From the NCBI GenBank assembly GCA_020725805.1, contig DYEF01000057.1, positions 1-18,955 on the forward strand: DNA of 18,955 bases. Direction: 5' to 3'. This document shows positions 848 to 15,620 of this stretch, piece after piece. How positions within the stretch are numbered: the stretch's first letter is position 1; every line of letters starts with the position of its first letter. Made by a program: the position numbers and the translations under genes. This stretch comes from Bdellovibrio sp. (GTDB lineage: Bacteria; Myxococcota; SpSt-1050). The notes under the pieces were generated by a model that saw only the letters and a program-made list of their open reading frames with translations, did not search any database and was not told where the DNA came from.

Positions 848-920
848 TGACCCCACCGGGAGTCGAACCCGGGTCTTAGCCGTGAGAGGGCTACGTCCTA
901 GGCCACTAGACGATGGGGCC
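848..920 (-). tRNA. tRNA-Glu (anticodon CTC)
   Basis: Read on the minus strand, the 73-nt cloverleaf starts with GGCCCCA, which pairs over 7 bp with TGGGGTC (one G-U). The anticodon loop is C-T-CTC-A-C, giving CTC and reading GAG. The T arm is CCGGG-TTCGACT-CCCGG. The discriminator is A. The 3' CCA is not encoded (the next bases are TTT), so it must be added by the CCA enzyme. It follows tRNA-Gln by only 5 nt and is surely on the same transcript. Confidence 0.95.
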
Positions 921-1337
921 GTAAATGGCTGGGAGACTAGGATTCGAACCTAGATAGACGGATCCAGAGTCCGTCGTCCTGCCGTTAGACGATCTCCCAG
1001 TATCTTTGCGCGGAATGATGAATATACGAGTTTCGCGCTTGTTCTCGTATATGTTTATTCCCTCCCACTTGGAGGAGGGGTTATTGTTCTTTATGTGTAT
1101 TGCTCTCAGATCCGAGCGGATAATTATCTTCTTGAACTCGTAATTCTGGCTTGCTCCGGTAAGTTTCTTGTAGAATTTTAGAGTCTCCGCATAGTTTCTG
1201 GAGCTCCTGTATCTGCATTTCTCTATCTTAACCGAACCTTCCGGAAGCGGTGCGATATTGCAGTCATCCTTTTCCGCAAAGGCCGTTCCGGCAGAAAGAG
1301 AGAACAGAGCAATTATGTAAAAAAGCCTACTCAGCAT
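906..1337 (-). CDS. Small secreted protein whose frame runs into the tRNAs
   Basis: I do not recognise the family. The N-terminus is a clear Sec signal peptide: a basic/polar start, a hydrophobic core (residues 5-17), and AFA at 19-21, so cleavage is expected before EKDD. The mature part contains two cysteines (26 and 41) and alternating hydrophobic strands, ending in ETRIFIIPRKD (residues 102-112). No stop codon appears before tRNA-Gln. Residues 113 to about 139 are a translation of that tRNA, and the stop (906-908) falls inside tRNA-Glu, so the last 31 residues are probably not a selected protein sequence. The native protein may be about 112 residues. No Shine-Dalgarno precedes the ATG; the likely promoter places the transcript start only about 4 nt upstream, suggesting leaderless translation. 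It could also be a decayed gene that has lost its stop. Confidence 0.55.
   Translation of the reverse strand: MLSRLFYIIALFSLSAGTAFAEKDDCNIAPLPEGSVKIEKCRYRSSRNYAETLKFYKKLTGASQNYEFKKIIIRSDLRAIHIKNNNPSSKWEGINIYENKRETRIFIIPRKDTGRSSNGRTTDSGSVYLGSNPSLPAIYGPIV
926..999 (-). tRNA. tRNA-Gln (anticodon CTG)
   Basis: Read on the minus strand, the acceptor TGGGAGA pairs with TCTCCCA, the discriminator is G, and CCA is encoded (926-928). The D arm is GTCT/GGAC. The anticodon stem-loop is ACGGA-CTCTGGA-TCCGT, so the anticodon is CTG and reads CAG. The T arm is CTAGG-TTCGAAT-CCTAG. The gene lies entirely inside the open reading frame of the upstream small secreted-protein gene. Confidence 0.95.
1022..1052 (-). 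other. 9-bp hairpin just upstream of tRNA-Gln
   Basis: ATATACGAG (1022-1030) and CTCGTATAT (1044-1052) are perfect complements around a 13-nt loop, 22 nt upstream of the tRNA-Gln 5' end. It lies within the last conserved-looking codons of the secreted-protein gene. It may be an RNA processing signal separating mRNA from tRNA, or chance. Confidence 0.35.
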
Positions 1338-1732: not shown

Positions 1733-1737
1733 TTTAT

Positions 1738-1918
1738 CCCCTGCCGTGCAGGTAAGAAATACACTGTTTGTGAACCAACATCACAGTTTTAGGGAATGCC
1801 CTCTGTCCGTGGTGTGCAGGCCCGTTTCGGGCGGGAAGCCTAAAGCGGATACCGGTGTGCCCACCTATCTTTATGATAGGTTCCATAATGGGTATTTCTA
1901 CCGCACAGATGGCGGGGG
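1738..1918 (+). ncRNA. ssrS: 6S RNA
   Basis: About 181 nt, close to the 184 nt of E. coli 6S. 6S RNA mimics an open promoter and sequesters sigma-70 RNA polymerase in stationary phase. The closing stem pairs CCCCTGCC (1738-1745) with GGCGGGGG (1911-1918), continuing with GTGCAGGTAAGAAATAC against GTATTTCTACCGCAC. The central part carries the conserved order: a GC hairpin followed by GAAGCCTAAA, then GGTGTGCCCACCTATC-loop-GATAGGTTC and GGGTA. These align with the corresponding parts of E. coli 6S (GAAGCCTTAAA, CACC-hairpin-GGTTC). It sits directly after zapA, as in many proteobacteria. A possible -10 (CATAAT, 1728-1733) overlaps the zapA stop, but I see no good -35, so 6S may be processed from a zapA-ssrS transcript. 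Confidence 0.88.
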
Positions 1919-1933
1919 TTCTTTTATTAATCC

Positions 1934-2156: not shown

Positions 2157-3710
2157 GTGATTTATCTGGCAGTAGGAATTGCCGCACTGGTGATAGGATT
2201 TATTGCCGGTATGGTAATCGAACACACGAAGAATCAGAAGGCCCGTAACGGGGCTCTGAGAAAGGCTGAGGATATTATTAATGACGCAAAGAAGGAGGCC
2301 GATAATATCGTCAAAAATGCCCGTCTTGATATCAAGGAGCTTGAGATAAGGTCCAGGACCGAATTCGAAAAGGAGACGAGGGAGAAGAAGGAGGAGTTGC
2401 TTCAGATCGAGAAGAGGCTGAGACAGAAGGAAGAGAATCTCGAGAAGAAGGTCGATTTTCTGGACAACAGGGAGGAAGAGCTGAAGAGGAGGGAGAAGAA
2501 CATAACAAGAAGGGAACAGATCGTTGCTGAAAACGAGAAGAAGTACAATGAGCTTCTGGACAGTGCAAAGACCCAGCTCGAGCGTGTGGCAGGTCTTTCA
2601 AGAGATGAGGCAAAGAAGGAGCTTATCCAGTCATTGACAGATGAGGCCAAGCTCGAGGCAGCAAAGATGGTCAAGCAGATAGAACAGGAGGCCAAGGATG
2701 AGGCCGAGAAGAAGGCGAAGGAGATAATTGCCCTTGCAATTCAGAGATATGCCGGTGATTATGTCGCAGAACGGACTGTAACCGTAATCGATCTTCCGGA
2801 CGAAGACCTCAAGGGAAGACTGATAGGCCGTGAGGGAAGGAATATAAGGGCTATTGAACAGGCAACCGGTGTGGACCTGATTATTGATGACACCCCCGAG
2901 GCGGTGATTATTTCATCCTTCGACCCGATAAGGAGAGAAGTGGCGAGAATAGCACTCGAAAAACTCATCGCAGACGGGAGAATTCACCCCGCAAGAATTG
3001 AAGAGGTAGTCTCCAAGACGAGAACAGAGGTGGAGAATGCGGCACGGCAGGCGGGAGAACAGGCTGTCTTCGACCTCGGTATTCACGGAATTCACCCGGA
3101 GCTGGTAAAACTGATAGGAAGGCTGAAATACAGATACTCCTACGGGCAGAATCAGTGGAAACACTCCATTGAGGTCGGATTCCTTGCAGGTGTTATGGCA
3201 TCTGAACTTGGTCTGAATGTCAAGCAGGCAAGGAGGGCCGGGCTGCTCCACGATATAGGAAAAGCCGTCGACCACGAGGTAGAGGGCTCACATGCATCTA
3301 TCGGTGCCGAACTTGCAAAGAAATACGGTGAATCACCAAAGATAATCCACGCAATCAAGGCACATCACGAGGAGGAGAAGCCCGATTCGGTGCTGGATGT
3401 AATAGTTCAGGCAGCCGATGCACTTTCGGGCGCAAGACCAGGTGCGAGACACGAGGTTCTGGAAACATATGTGAAACGTCTTGAGGATATGGAGAAGATC
3501 TGTACTGAGTTCGAGGGTGTGGAGAAGGCATTTGCAATTCAGGCAGGAAGGGAGATAAGGGTAATCGTCCACAATCAGAAGGTTACCGATGAACAGCTCA
3601 CGATTCTTGCCAAGGATATTTCAAAGAAGATTCAGGAGACACTCGCATACCCCGGTCAGATTAAGGTAGTTGTAATCAGGGAGAGCCGCGCGATTGAATA
3701 TGCAAAGTAG
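2157..3710 (+). CDS. rny: Ribonuclease Y (RNase Y)
   Basis: A 517-residue membrane-anchored endoribonuclease that starts mRNA decay. Residues 3-21 form a single N-terminal membrane segment, followed by a long, highly charged coiled coil (about 25-190). A KH RNA-binding domain follows (about 207-272) with the signature GREGRN at 224-229. The HD hydrolase domain (about 336-430) has His336, the His365-Asp366 pair in LLHDIGKA and Asp421 in QAADALS. Length and order are standard. The start is GTG at 2157 with AAGGAGG ending 6 nt upstream. It heads an eight-gene operon, and rny followed by ymdB is a well-known pairing (e.g. Bacillus). Carrying RNase Y rather than relying only on RNase E is consistent with a lineage outside the gammaproteobacteria. 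Confidence 0.95.
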
Positions 3711-11255: not shown

Positions 11256-12632
11256 TTATTTAAGGAATTCGGCACCCGTATCGTTGAAGTATTCGAGATT
11301 TACGAAGCCCGAGCCGTCGTAATCAGACGGATACAAAGGCGCAACTCCCTGCTTCTGCGGTATGAAGTTTGCAGGCTCCCAGACCCTTCCCATTACAAGG
11401 GAACTCTTGATAATTCCGCAGTCTCTGTTGGTAAATTTGTCGGAACAGAATCCGTCGAAGAAGGCGTTTTTGTAGCCTGCGCCGTTTGTTGTCCCCTGAG
11501 AAGAGAAGTATTTGAAGCCTATTGCATTGGTTTTATAGTCGGTACCAGAGGTTCCGTCGTCATAGAGATAATTCAGGAATATTACCGAATGTCCTGTTCC
11601 GCTTGTCCTGTCATAGTTTACGAAATCAGCCGGTTTGAGTTTTGAGAAGTCATCGACTTTTTCTCCAAGCCCGTATTTTATGAGCGCGTCACGTGCACCG
11701 TAACACTTTATGGCACTGTCTACATACCAGCAGTGTTTGAACGGCTCCCATTTTAACCACGATGAGGGCATATTCCAGACGCGGCTGTCCTGTGTGTCTT
11801 CGTAATACTTATTCATTGCCATAACGAGCGTCTGCATCGTGATACCTACGCAGTGAGATGTCCGGTCCTTTACGGCAAAGACAAGGTCGCCGTTATAGTA
11901 GAGACTCCTTGTGTGCTGACCGTCTCCGTAACCCAGATTGGAATCCTCTTTTATGAGCAGTTCAATCGTCTCCAGAATATACTGGGCAAATGTCTTGTCC
12001 GGTTCTTCTATTGTGAGGTGGATTATCAGTTCGGTCTTCCCGTTGATAACAAAGCTTATCTCCCTGTTTCCGATTCCGTGAAAACTGTATGTAAACTCGA
12101 AATCACCTGCGCTGTTCCATTCTGCGAATTTGTAATACCCTTCTGCAAGGACGACAAAAGGTGCAGGTGTATATCCCTTAAAGAGCACAGGGGTCAGCTT
12201 TTTGAAGTGTTCGCCGTCTTTCGGTGAATCAAGTCTGAAAGGCTCTGTGATTACTGTGTCTGTAACAGACTCGTCTGCAAGAGCATCTGAGACTATATCT
12301 TCTGAATTAATAATATCAGAAATTGTGTCCGGGATATCCTCATAATTCTCTGCATCGGGGGTAGAAGAACCGTCGGCAATTTCAGTATCAGGAATAATGA
12401 TTATATCTTCTTCAATCTCGCTTGTGTCATTATTATTTGCATCCTCATTAACTATAATTTCGTCCTTTGAAGACAGGTCGGATATTATGTCTTTAGCGTT
12501 TAATATATCTGTCACATCATTTAGGTAGGTAACATCACCGCCTTTGTTACCCGTCTGACTTTCATTGTTTTCTTCGGAGCAGTAAATAAAGACAAAAAGG
12601 ATTGTAAGGACGGCAACAATTGATTTTTTCAT
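11256..12632 (-). CDS. Lipoprotein with Asp-rich linker, Ig-like and Cys/His hydrolase-like domain
   Basis: 458 residues; no exact family recognised. The N-terminus is a hydrophobic signal ending in FIYC, so Cys18 is the likely lipidated residue, although Tyr just before it is unusual. Residues 19-130 are an Asp/Glu/Ser/Thr-rich linker typical of surface lipoproteins. Residues 131-208 resemble an Ig-like domain (FRLDSPKDGEHF... to IHLTIEEP). The C-terminal part has a possible catalytic Cys261 (SHCVGITMQTL) and His348 in PADFVNYDRTSGTGHSVIFL, the order and spacing style of NlpC/P60 or CHAP-type Cys-His hydrolases; assignment to that clan is inference. Four further cysteines (301, 310, 396, 405) may form disulfides. 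GGGAGG lies 7 nt before the ATG. It probably acts outside the inner membrane on peptidoglycan or a peptide bond. Confidence 0.75.
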   Translation of the reverse strand: MKKSIVAVLTILFVFIYCSEENNESQTGNKGGDVTYLNDVTDILNAKDIISDLSSKDEIIVNEDANNNDTSEIEEDIIIIPDTEIADGSSTPDAENYEDIPDTISDIINSEDIVSDALADESVTDTVITEPFRLDSPKDGEHFKKLTPVLFKGYTPAPFVVLAEGYYKFAEWNSAGDFEFTYSFHGIGNREISFVINGKTELIIHLTIEEPDKTFAQYILETIELLIKEDSNLGYGDGQHTRSLYYNGDLVFAVKDRTSHCVGITMQTLVMAMNKYYEDTQDSRVWNMPSSWLKWEPFKHCWYVDSAIKCYGARDALIKYGLGEKVDDFSKLKPADFVNYDRTSGTGHSVIFLNYLYDDGTSGTDYKTNAIGFKYFSSQGTTNGAGYKNAFFDGFCSDKFTNRDCGIIKSSLVMGRVWEPANFIPQKQGVAPLYPSDYDGSGFVNLEYFNDTGAEFLK

Positions 12633-12835: not shown

Positions 12836-12872
12836 GCAAAAAAGCCCTGTAAGGTAATCCTCACAGGGCTTC
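12836..12872 (-). terminator. Strong intrinsic terminator of the Cys-rich protein gene
   Basis: On the minus strand AGCCCTGT (12870-12863) pairs with ACAGGGCT (12850-12843). An inner AGG/CCT pairing lies around an ATTA loop, and six T follow (12843-12838). It begins about 30 nt past the stop of the 790-residue protein gene. Confidence 0.9.
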
Positions 12873-12899: not shown

Positions 12900-15272
12900 T
12901 TACTTTGGCAGGCAGCAGGCTCCTTCGAAGCAGGCATACCCTTTTGGGCACTGGGAGTCACTCGAACAGGGGGCAAATGTCTCGATACACTCGCCGTGGC
13001 ATACGCCTTTGTATGCAATCTTTACTCCGGCACACATTGCCTCGCACTCGTTCCCGTATGTCTTTCCGTCGACTCCGCAGACAGGTGCATAATAGAGCGG
13101 GCAGATACAGGATGTCATCTGGCAGCAGCCGTTGATGCAGGCATATCCTGCCTTGCAGTCGGAATCTTTACCGCAGGCCGGCTGGTCGAATGTACAGGCG
13201 TTGGCATAGCATTCCTTGGATATTACATTCCCCTTTTCATCATAGCATACTCTGCATATTCCGCCGTTCGGGTCCTCGAATTCCTCACATTTTCCTGAAC
13301 CGGTGCATTCCTTTCTGGTAACATTGCCATACTGGTCGAAGCAGATTGTGCAGAAACTCCCGCTGGGATCTGTATATGTGTCGCACTTCTCTGCTACTCT
13401 GCATTCCTTTGATACGATGTTGCCGTTGAAATCGACACAGACGGCACATATCGAATTGTTTTCATAGGTCTCTCTGCAGACAACCGAAGGATAACATTCC
13501 TTGAATATTACCTTTCCTTCATTATTTGTGCAAAGTGTGCATTTCATTCCGTTATCCTCATACTGTTTGCAGAATGTAGGATCGTAACAGTCCTCTCTTG
13601 CTATACTGCCGTCAGGAAAGAAGCAGACTCTGCAGGTAAGTCCGTATTCGTCAGTGAATTCATTGCATTTCAGAGGAGGTTCATTGCATTTACAGACCTC
13701 ACAGCCTCTCTCGTCTGTAACAAATCCGTATTCGCAGTAGAGGTCACAGAGTACAGGTTCACAGAGCGGCATGCAGACACCGCCGCCGCCGCAGTCAGTG
13801 GCACAGCATTCTGCAGGATATATTCCGTCGTTCGGCGATCTGCAGACACCTTTTTCATCGATCCATGCACCCCAGCATTTTTCACTGTTATATCCGCAGT
13901 CCATAAGGGCACAGAAATAGCCTTCGGGACAATCTCTGTCTGAATAGCATTCTTTTGATGAAGGTACGCACTGGCCATAGCAAACATCGGGACAGGCCAT
14001 ACCTTTACTCGGATCGCACCCGGGAGGAGGATTGCATATTTCACCTGCATTGCATCTAAAACCATCAGGACAGTCTATATCTGAGTAGCAACCCATCTTG
14101 CATTCGCCGTAATATGCTATTCCAGCTCCGGCGCATTTTGCCTCACATTCATTTCCATAAGTTACACCGTCTGTACCGCATACAGGGGCATAGTACAACG
14201 GGCAGGCACATCCGATGAGCTGGCAGCAGCCATTGATGCACTTATATCCGTCTACTCCAAGCGGGCAGTCAGAATCCATCTTACATTCGAATCCCATCTT
14301 ACAGGCACCGGAGCATCTGCAGCAGGAACCATCAGACTGACATTCAAATCCCTTTTCGCACATAAAGTCTATTCCGCATTTGCCTTCCGATGATGCATAG
14401 CATTCACACTCGCCCTGACATTCACCTTGATATGCCACCATAACACCGGCACATTTTGCAAAACATTCATTGCCGTAGGTTACTCCGTCGGTTCCGCAGA
14501 CAGGTGCATAGTATTCGGGGCAGATACAATTCTGATAAGGCAGGCAGACACCTTCAGACGGCGGAATTACGCACTTGGTTGTAAAGCACTTTTCTCTTCC
14601 GTCAGAACGGTAGTCGGCATTCGGGTATGCACAGTAATAACCTTCCGGGCAATCAGAATCGGATTCACACTTCATATCATTCTTCTTGACACAGACACCT
14701 TCTTCAATAACTACACAATTCGGTCCAAAGCATCTGTATGAACCTTCTTCGTCTCCAGCAACCGGAAATTCACAGTAGTAACCTTCAGGACAATCGAAAT
14801 CTGACTGGCACTTGTATGTGGCCGGAACACACTTGCCGTAACATTCACAGCCTGCACAGAGCGGGCAGGGGCCGAATTCACATATTTCGCCCTTTTCGCA
14901 TTCTGAATCTGACTTACAGACCCTCTCCTTACAGGAGACCACACATACACCGTCCTTACAGAGCCCGACCGGATACTGGCAGGAATTCATTTTGCTGACG
15001 CCGTCCTCATAGACGAGGGTCATACAGTCTGCATCGGATTTACACTCCACAAGGTCGTTTTTACAGTCGAAGCTGCATTTGCCTGATTCACACTTCCAAT
15101 CGCCAACGCATAACGGGTGTGTAAGACCTTCACAGTCCTTTGCAGTAATACAGGAATTCGTCCCGACATTGCCGAGATCTCTCGTCCCTCCGCACCCTCC
15201 GCTGTCTGCGCCGACAACGATAAAGAACGTCAGCACAGAAGAGAGGATGAGCAAAAATCTCTTTCTTTTCAT
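12900..15272 (-). CDS. Secreted Cys-rich protein with Kazal and antistasin-like domains
   Basis: 790 residues with about 121 cysteines (15%). The N-terminus is a signal peptide (hydrophobic 6-20) followed by SGGC, so Cys27 may be a weak lipobox; the protein is exported either way. Three Kazal-type protease inhibitor domains lie at 249-285, 355-391 and 722-758 (CPxYYAPVCGxDGxTYGNEC). By alignment with classical Kazal inhibitors their P1 residues are Glu253, Leu359 and Leu726. An antistasin-like domain is at 500-529 (C-x3-C-x4-C-x3-C-x10-C-x2-C-x-C). Five copies of a 31-32-residue Cys repeat follow (536-688). Many CxSDxDCPxGYxC motifs (e.g. 155-167, 202-214, 442-454) fill the rest. Protease inhibition is the likely role of the Kazal and antistasin parts, and multiple disulfides imply an oxidising location. 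AGGAGG lies 6 nt before the ATG. No clear promoter was found; its own strong terminator follows. Confidence 0.85.
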   Translation of the reverse strand: MKRKRFLLILSSVLTFFIVVGADSGGCGGTRDLGNVGTNSCITAKDCEGLTHPLCVGDWKCESGKCSFDCKNDLVECKSDADCMTLVYEDGVSKMNSCQYPVGLCKDGVCVVSCKERVCKSDSECEKGEICEFGPCPLCAGCECYGKCVPATYKCQSDFDCPEGYYCEFPVAGDEEGSYRCFGPNCVVIEEGVCVKKNDMKCESDSDCPEGYYCAYPNADYRSDGREKCFTTKCVIPPSEGVCLPYQNCICPEYYAPVCGTDGVTYGNECFAKCAGVMVAYQGECQGECECYASSEGKCGIDFMCEKGFECQSDGSCCRCSGACKMGFECKMDSDCPLGVDGYKCINGCCQLIGCACPLYYAPVCGTDGVTYGNECEAKCAGAGIAYYGECKMGCYSDIDCPDGFRCNAGEICNPPPGCDPSKGMACPDVCYGQCVPSSKECYSDRDCPEGYFCALMDCGYNSEKCWGAWIDEKGVCRSPNDGIYPAECCATDCGGGGVCMPLCEPVLCDLYCEYGFVTDERGCEVCKCNEPPLKCNEFTDEYGLTCRVCFFPDGSIAREDCYDPTFCKQYEDNGMKCTLCTNNEGKVIFKECYPSVVCRETYENNSICAVCVDFNGNIVSKECRVAEKCDTYTDPSGSFCTICFDQYGNVTRKECTGSGKCEEFEDPNGGICRVCYDEKGNVISKECYANACTFDQPACGKDSDCKAGYACINGCCQMTSCICPLYYAPVCGVDGKTYGNECEAMCAGVKIAYKGVCHGECIETFAPCSSDSQCPKGYACFEGACCLPK
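13209..13667 (-). repeat. Five tandem 31-32-residue Cys repeats in the coding region
   Basis: Repeat units start at Cys536, 568, 599, 630 and 662 of the protein. Each has the pattern C-x(9-11)-C-x2-C-x(11)-C, with a conserved core of C-x2-C-x3-xG-x-[IV]-x-x-[EK][ED]C, for example CRVCYDEKGNVISKEC in the last copy. The DNA copies have diverged, so the array is old rather than a recent slippage product. I do not recognise the unit as a named domain. Confidence 0.75.
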
Positions 15273-15620
15273 AAAAAACCTCCTAAAAAGGGTTAAAAAC
15301 GATACATTTTTATATTCAAGTTCTGTTCCAGAATACGGGCATAAAAAGTGGCTTGTTTCAAAGGGTTAGATTTTTCAAGGATTGCTTATAACTAGTACGG
15401 GACTCAGAATTTTTTTATTGGACGGTAAAAAATCAGTTCGCTTATAAAAAACCGGAGACGAACCGGAAAAGATATATCTTATGCATATAAAGGTATGCCT
15501 GCCGATGAAACAAGTCAGTAATCAGTAATCTCAATATGTTATAACTGTACCTTCAGAAAAGCGGTAAAAATTTTTAGTTTCATCTCTGCTCTATCCGGCG
15601 ATTTACGGATTTTGCAGGAA
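15273..15620. other. Gene-free stretch between Cys-rich gene and kinase gene
   Basis: AT-rich, with no credible coding region on either strand. It contains the Shine-Dalgarno of the Cys-rich gene (15279-15284), a possible terminator (15445-15466), a perfect 12-bp palindrome AAGATATATCTT (15469-15480), and a CAGTAAT direct repeat (around 15516-15528). I could not find a convincing -35/-10 pair for the Cys-rich gene, although one must lie here unless that gene is read from the kinase operon. Confidence 0.4.
15445..15466 (-). terminator. Possible short intrinsic terminator of the kinase operon
   Basis: On the minus strand CCGG, a 7-nt loop, CCGG and then TTTTTT (15451-15446). The stem is only 4 bp but fully GC, and it lies about 155 nt past the kinase stop. 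The perfect palindrome AAGATATATCTT lies immediately upstream. Confidence 0.4.

What the first reader, a model, noticed from the sequence alone, without database searches (positions are those of the whole stretch)
12900..15272. Bacterial multi-headed protease inhibitor with about 120 cysteines
Three Kazal domains and an antistasin-like domain, both mostly known from animals, occur in one exported bacterial protein with five further Cys repeats. The predicted P1 residues differ (Glu, Leu, Leu), suggesting targets of different specificity: a Glu-specific protease and chymotrypsin- or elastase-like proteases. It could shield the cell from proteases of prey, host or competitors, or control its own.
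Basis: partly seen in the sequence, partly recalled or inferred. Interest (0 to 1): 0.65.

Follow-up and report, generated by a model that had tools for sequence, protein, structure and literature searches.

The report
Bacterial surface multi-headed Kazal–antistasin lipoprotein
A single bacterial gene encodes a probably lipid-anchored, fully disulfide-bonded protein carrying four small protein-cutting-enzyme inhibitor modules best known from leeches and other animals; relatives keep the same bait residue in each module, so it probably blocks subtilisin-like enzymes at the cell surface, but nothing has been measured.

Summary
The minus-strand ORF 12900-15272 (790 aa) has 121 Cys, three Kazal domains, one antistasin domain and five ~31-aa four-Cys repeats. 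Kazal 3 models as a Kazal fold with the inhibitory loop in place (0.5 Å to leech tryptase inhibitor). Orthologue comparison shows strong purifying selection and 113/113 aligned Cys kept. New here: (1) Cys27 is probably the lipidated N-terminus, since the Cys count after it is even in the protein and its four closest relatives, and in 27 of 29 related lipoproteins; (2) the antistasin P1 is Asp; (3) P1 is conserved head by head (K1 Glu 5/5, K2 Leu 4/4, K3 Leu/Met) while P2 and P1' of K1 vary; (4) the phylum carries Kazal in 40/195 and antistasin in 33/195 genomes, and in one other family all nine genera carry a related protein with antistasin P1 Asp and Kazal P1 Glu/Asp. Best explanation: a membrane-tethered multi-headed inhibitor, mainly of subtilisin-type proteases, with a conserved target rather than an arms race. 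A non-inhibitory agrin/follistatin-like role remains a live rival. New variant of a known kind.

The parts
12900..15272 (-). ORF, 790 aa: exported multi-domain Cys-rich protein (121 Cys)
15279..15284 (-). Shine-Dalgarno AGGAGG, 6 nt before ATG
   Evidence: sequence
15192..15272 (-). Signal peptide, residues 1-27, ending ADSGGC27; Cys27 is the presumed lipidated Cys (atypical lipobox; paralogue has LGGC)
   Evidence: Cys parity; Cys27 invariant in alignment
14418..14528 (-). Kazal 1 (residues 249-285), CICPEYYAPVC..., P1 = Glu253 (14514-14516)
14100..14210 (-). Kazal 2 (residues 355-391), CACPLYYAPVC..., P1 = Leu359 (14196-14198)
12999..13109 (-). Kazal 3 (residues 722-758), CICPLYYAPVC..., P1 = Leu726 (13095-13097)
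   Evidence: model
13686..13763 (-). Antistasin domain core (residues 504-529), P1 = Asp510 (13743-13745)
13572..13667 (-). Four-Cys repeat 1 (536-567)
13479..13571 (-). Four-Cys repeat 2 (568-598)
13386..13478 (-). Four-Cys repeat 3 (599-629)
13290..13385 (-). Four-Cys repeat 4 (630-661)
13197..13289 (-). Four-Cys repeat 5 (662-692); modelled as three short beta strands
14529..15152 (-). N-terminal run of CxSDxDC(P)xGxxC modules (residues 41-248)
   Evidence: no Pfam family above cut-off
12838..12869 (-). Likely intrinsic terminator GCCCTGT...ACAGGGC-TTTTTT, so the gene is probably monocistronic
   Evidence: read; 12-nt loop is outside the pattern scan

Best explanation
A lipid-anchored, fully disulfide-bonded surface protein that displays four canonical (Laskowski-type) serine-protease inhibitor heads on a Cys-rich stalk. 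Each head offers a rigid loop whose P1 residue (Glu, Leu, Asp, Leu from N to C terminus) enters the S1 pocket of a serine protease and blocks it. The most likely targets are subtilisin-family (S8) proteases, which accept Leu and are inhibited by Glu-P1 Kazals. Head-by-head conservation of P1 suggests a stable target, plausibly a protease the cell or its kin secretes, with the anchored inhibitor protecting the envelope. Shown: domains, modelled fold of Kazal 3, conservation, purifying selection. Strongly inferred: export. Inferred with indirect support: lipidation, full disulfide pairing. Inferred: inhibition, S8 targets, self-protection.
For: Pfam hits above cut-off; K1 aligns without gaps to leech tryptase inhibitor through the reactive loop; Kazal 3 model pLDDT about 84-90, 0.5 Å rmsd over 37 columns to trypsin-bound LDTI, TMt 0.89, Z 5.8 by VIA. 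P1 conserved while P2 and P1' vary in K1: PEY/PEI/YEL/PEY/YEI; K2 Leu in 4/4; K3 L, L, M, M; antistasin mostly D/E. In the f5 family nine genera carry antistasin P1 Asp 9/9 and Kazal P1 Glu 8, Asp 1. Glu P1 sits in subtilisin S1 in a crystal structure and other Glu-P1 Kazals inhibit subtilisin (PMC3082530); the EPI1 Kazal inhibits subtilisin A (PMC1236909). The genome has an exported S8 protease with DTG, GHGTHCSG and GTSMACPH motifs, and S8 occurs in both relatives. Even Cys counts after Cys27: 120, 112, 98, 104, 100; 27 of 29 related lipoproteins even.
Against: No inhibition data. Acidic P1 at two heads is poor for most S1 proteases. Most of the chain is non-inhibitor Cys modules. Kazal and antistasin modules also serve as non-inhibitory spacers in animals. 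The window lipobox is non-standard (SGGC). Only 4-5 close relatives carry the P1 comparison, and the K2/K3 loops hardly vary anywhere, so P1 conservation there is weak evidence. No protease gene is linked to it in this genome; the f5-family neighbour is a metallopeptidase, not a Kazal target.
Confidence: 0.5

Rival explanations
1. A non-inhibitory cell-surface protein: Kazal and antistasin modules act as stable disulfide-rich spacers or binding modules, as in agrin, follistatin and SPARC-type proteins, and the whole is an adhesive or protective coat.
For: Kazal and antistasin make up only about 137 of 790 residues; the rest is Cys modules of a kind also found on other exported proteins, including this genome's own S8 protease. 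Agrin and follistatin are among the best PDB matches of K1. P1 conservation is also expected if the loop is a fixed binding surface. The four-Cys repeats occur in tandem without any Kazal in other genomes.
Against: The reactive loop has no insertion or deletion relative to true inhibitors and superposes on protease-bound LDTI. In K1, P1 is fixed while its neighbours change.
Confidence: 0.3
2. A shield against foreign proteases (prey, competitors, host), in which different P1 residues widen the target range.
For: Different P1 residues in one chain; phylum-wide P1 diversity across unrelated Kazal proteins; paralogues in G002, one with an extra antistasin head with P1 Lys.
Against: Within orthologous positions P1 does not diversify, unlike what an arms race would give; the f5 family keeps Asp/Glu across nine genera.
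Confidence: 0.15
3. A Cys-rich metal-binding or redox protein in which the inhibitor-like modules are incidental.
For: 15% Cys.
Against: Even Cys counts in all close relatives and recognisable disulfide-bonded folds.
Confidence: 0.03

Closest known systems
Non-classical Kazal inhibitors (MEROPS family I1): leech-derived tryptase inhibitor, infestin, rhodniin, CrSPI-1
   Same: Short CxC start, CPxxYxPVCGxDGxTY core, loop geometry, helix between Cys 4 and Cys 5; multi-headed members exist; Glu P1 occurs (CrSPI-1)
   Different: Animal secreted inhibitors with Kazal heads only; here in a bacterium, probably lipid-anchored, combined with antistasin and unknown Cys repeats; P1 rarely basic (5/90 heads Lys/Arg)
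Antistasin family (antistasin, hirustasin, guamerin, gigastasin)
   Same: Cys spacing of the 26-residue core and position of the reactive bond
   Different: P1 Asp instead of Arg or Met; the N-terminal Cys subdomain is not clearly conserved; only one head
EPI1 of Phytophthora infestans (Kazal inhibitor of subtilases)
   Same: Microbial Kazal inhibitor acting on subtilisin A and plant subtilase P69B (PMC1236909)
   Different: Soluble, two domains, from an oomycete plant pathogen; no antistasin
Ecotin
   Same: Bacterial inhibitor of serine proteases (PMC9904509)
   Different: Unrelated fold and no Kazal or antistasin domain (own knowledge)
TIGR04201 Myxo_Cys_RPT and other Cys-rich exported proteins of Myxococcota-type bacteria
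   Same: Repeated Cys modules, lipoprotein export; an f5-family relative hits TIGR04201 above cut-off
   Different: The window protein itself has no NCBIfam hit and carries inhibitor heads

Membership tests
Kazal domain (PF00050/PF07648) | Profile score above curated cut-off | tested here: met
   51.1 bits (cut-off 21) and 49.4 (22.8), three stretches
Kazal domain (PF00050/PF07648) | Six Cys in Kazal order and Kazal fold with inhibitory loop | tested here: met
   (modelled for Kazal 3 only; K1 and K2 by near-identical sequence)
Kazal domain (PF00050/PF07648) | Inhibits a serine protease | not testable with these tools
   needs assay
Antistasin family (PF02822) | Profile score above cut-off and Cys spacing of core | tested here: met
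Antistasin family (PF02822) | Complete antistasin domain including N-terminal Cys subdomain | tested here: inconclusive
   region before residue 504 is Cys-rich but spacing was compared only by eye
Antistasin family (PF02822) | Inhibits a serine protease | not testable with these tools
   needs assay
Bacterial lipoprotein | Standard lipobox [LVI][ASTVI][GAS]C | tested here: not met
   window and G001 have GADSGGC and were not picked up by the lipobox rule; paralogue G002a has LGGC. Hence 'probable lipoprotein', not a filed member
Bacterial lipoprotein | Conserved Cys after the hydrophobic segment, left unpaired | tested here: inconclusive
   Cys27 invariant in five proteins and remaining Cys even in all, indirect support only
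TIGR04201 Myxo_Cys_RPT | Profile hit | tested here: not met
   no NCBIfam family for the window protein

The most novel reading that the evidence does not exclude
Multi-headed Kazal-antistasin lipoproteins are a conserved bacterial surface system of canonical inhibitors with acidic P1 residues, kept by whole lineages to hold their own secreted subtilisins in check, and antistasin inhibition is thus not essentially an animal invention.
Probability: 0.25. Interest if true: 0.65.

Novelty: new variant of a known kind. Interest (0 to 1): 0.45.

Why it matters
Canonical inhibitors of the Kazal and antistasin types are studied almost only in animals and oomycetes. A widespread, conserved, probably surface-anchored bacterial version with acidic P1 residues would give a testable model for how protein-degrading bacteria survive their own proteases, new subtilisin inhibitors, and evidence on where antistasin domains come from. 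The counts here (40/195 and 33/195 genomes of one phylum) show it is not a curiosity of one genome.

Tried and rejected
Full-length AlphaFold model with five sequences: pLDDT 48.5, unusable beyond local secondary structure. Aligning overlapping repeat pairs gave a wrong register, and mixing repeats with Kazals misaligned them, so the repeats were modelled only within the C-terminal fragment. The structure comparison covered only the Kazal part of that model (residues 59-103), so the fold of the four-Cys repeats is not settled. Phage origin: no tblastn match in 50,697 phage records. Conserved neighbourhood: none seen between G000, G001 and G002. The own trypsin-like hit is a DegP-type protease (judged from sequence), not an obvious target. 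A first P1 tally failed through a wrong pattern, redone. Literature search found no paper on Kazal in Myxococcota; the single hit was an author name.

Full report
Observation. The minus-strand ORF 12900-15272 begins with ATG behind AGGAGG and encodes 790 aa. Pfam places three Kazal stretches and one antistasin stretch well above curated cut-offs. It has 121 Cys. Five repeats of 31-32 aa with four Cys each lie at residues 536-692. The rest is CxSDxDC-type Cys modules that match no Pfam family above cut-off. A hairpin with a T-run at 12838-12869 follows the gene (read), so it is probably monocistronic.

Reactive sites. Kazal P1 residues are Glu253, Leu359 and Leu726, reading the residue two after the second Cys as in leech tryptase inhibitor, to which K1 aligns without gaps through the loop. 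The antistasin core aligns to antistasin, hirustasin and guamerin so that Asp510 sits at their P1 (Arg, Arg, Met) (the P1 positions of these inhibitors are from established knowledge).

Fold. A model of the last 131 residues (repeat 5, one Cys module, Kazal 3, C-terminus) has mean pLDDT 81. Its Kazal part matches LDTI in the trypsin complex at 0.5 Å over 37 columns with TMt 0.89, Z 5.8, rmsd 1.4 Å over 40 residues by the second aligner. The best Foldseek E-value is only 8e-3 because the domain is tiny; sequence and structure agree. The full-length model is unusable.

Relatives. G001 (same genus; contig JAOAFA010000058, Deltaproteobacteria MAG SKW273) has an 83% identical orthologue; G002 (same order; JACRCP01 groundwater MAG) has three paralogues. 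Against G001, pN is 0.098 and pS 0.82 (saturated), and 113/113 aligned Cys are kept: strong purifying selection. Gene neighbourhoods differ; in G001 the gene lies after ileS-lspA-lgt-lgt (identified from sequence).

P1 conservation. K1 loops are PEY, PEI, YEL, PEY, YEI: P1 Glu is fixed while P2 and P1' change. K2 is Leu in 4/4, K3 Leu, Leu, Met, Met. Antistasin P1 is D, E, E, D, with an extra head K in G002b and G in G002c. In family f5 all nine genera carry a related ~800-1000 aa Cys-rich protein with an antistasin head P1 Asp (9/9) and a Kazal P1 Glu (8) or Asp (1). Over 90 distinct CxC-type Kazal heads gathered here, 41 have acidic P1 and 5 Lys/Arg; this set was gathered by similarity to the window protein and to Pfam, so it is not an unbiased census.

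Anchoring. The window sequence lacks a standard lipobox, but Cys27 is invariant in the five closest proteins and the number of Cys after it is even in all five (120, 112, 98, 104, 100). Among Kazal/antistasin proteins with a recognisable lipobox 27 of 29 are even. Because each module carries an even number of Cys, parity mainly says that all modules are fully paired and that Cys27 is the odd one out, as a lipidated Cys would be.

Distribution. In 195 genomes of the phylum Kazal occurs in 40 and antistasin in 33; 14 control genomes have none. Kazal also appears in Bacteroidota, Patescibacteria and archaeal MAGs. A 2025 paper reports 97.8% of InterPro antistasin proteins as eukaryotic (PMC12482156), so antistasin in bacteria is the less expected half.

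Function. Published data point elsewhere: CrSPI-1 places P1 Glu48 in the subtilisin S1 pocket, and several Glu-P1 Kazals inhibit subtilisin (PMC3082530); EPI1 inhibits subtilisin A and a plant subtilase (PMC1236909). Leu is also acceptable to subtilisin (established knowledge). The genome encodes an exported S8 protease with intact catalytic motifs, itself bearing similar C-terminal Cys modules, and S8 is found in both relatives. In three f5 genera the related gene stands next to an exported oligoendopeptidase F, and in four next to a transglutaminase-fold lipoprotein. Proteolysis is thus in the neighbourhood, but the link is circumstantial. I judge an anchored multi-headed inhibitor most likely (0.5), a non-inhibitory surface protein next (0.3).

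Novelty. Kazal and antistasin inhibitors are known; the combination, the probable lipid anchor and the conserved acidic P1 in bacteria make it a new variant of a known kind.

Noticed in passing
window 1735-1922 (+): 6S RNA (Rfam RF00013, 89.5 bits) between a ZapA-like gene (1364-1732) and rny (2157-3710).
   Followed up: partly
window 848-920 and 926-999 (-): tRNA-Glu(CTC) and tRNA-Gln(CTG); ORF 906-1337 runs over them, so its C-terminal part is probably not coding as called.
   Followed up: partly
window 11256-12632 (-): 458-aa predicted lipoprotein downstream of the Kazal gene, with SHCVG and GTGHSVIF segments suggesting a papain/NlpC-like hydrolase; no Pfam or NCBIfam hit.
   Followed up: no
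L178 283-2445 (-); L034 10896-11942 (-); L035 10633-13692 (-): Exported proteins end in GCSC plus a few residues, without a following membrane segment; possibly a short C-terminal sorting or lipidation tag.
   Followed up: no
L010, L015, L022, L032 (G017, G056, G054): The ~31-aa four-Cys repeat (C..G..CxxC....G....C) occurs in 3-8 copies in proteins without a detected Kazal or antistasin head; apparently an undescribed repeat family.
   Followed up: partly
L139, L133, L153: Chitinophagales and Saprospiraceae MAGs encode very large exported proteins with many Kazal heads (L139: ~2,050 aa frame, 161 Cys).
   Followed up: no
L187, L188, L190: Conserved cluster in family f5: beta-propeller (Reg_prop) lipoprotein, Kazal-antistasin lipoprotein, exported PepF oligoendopeptidase on one strand.
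   Followed up: partly
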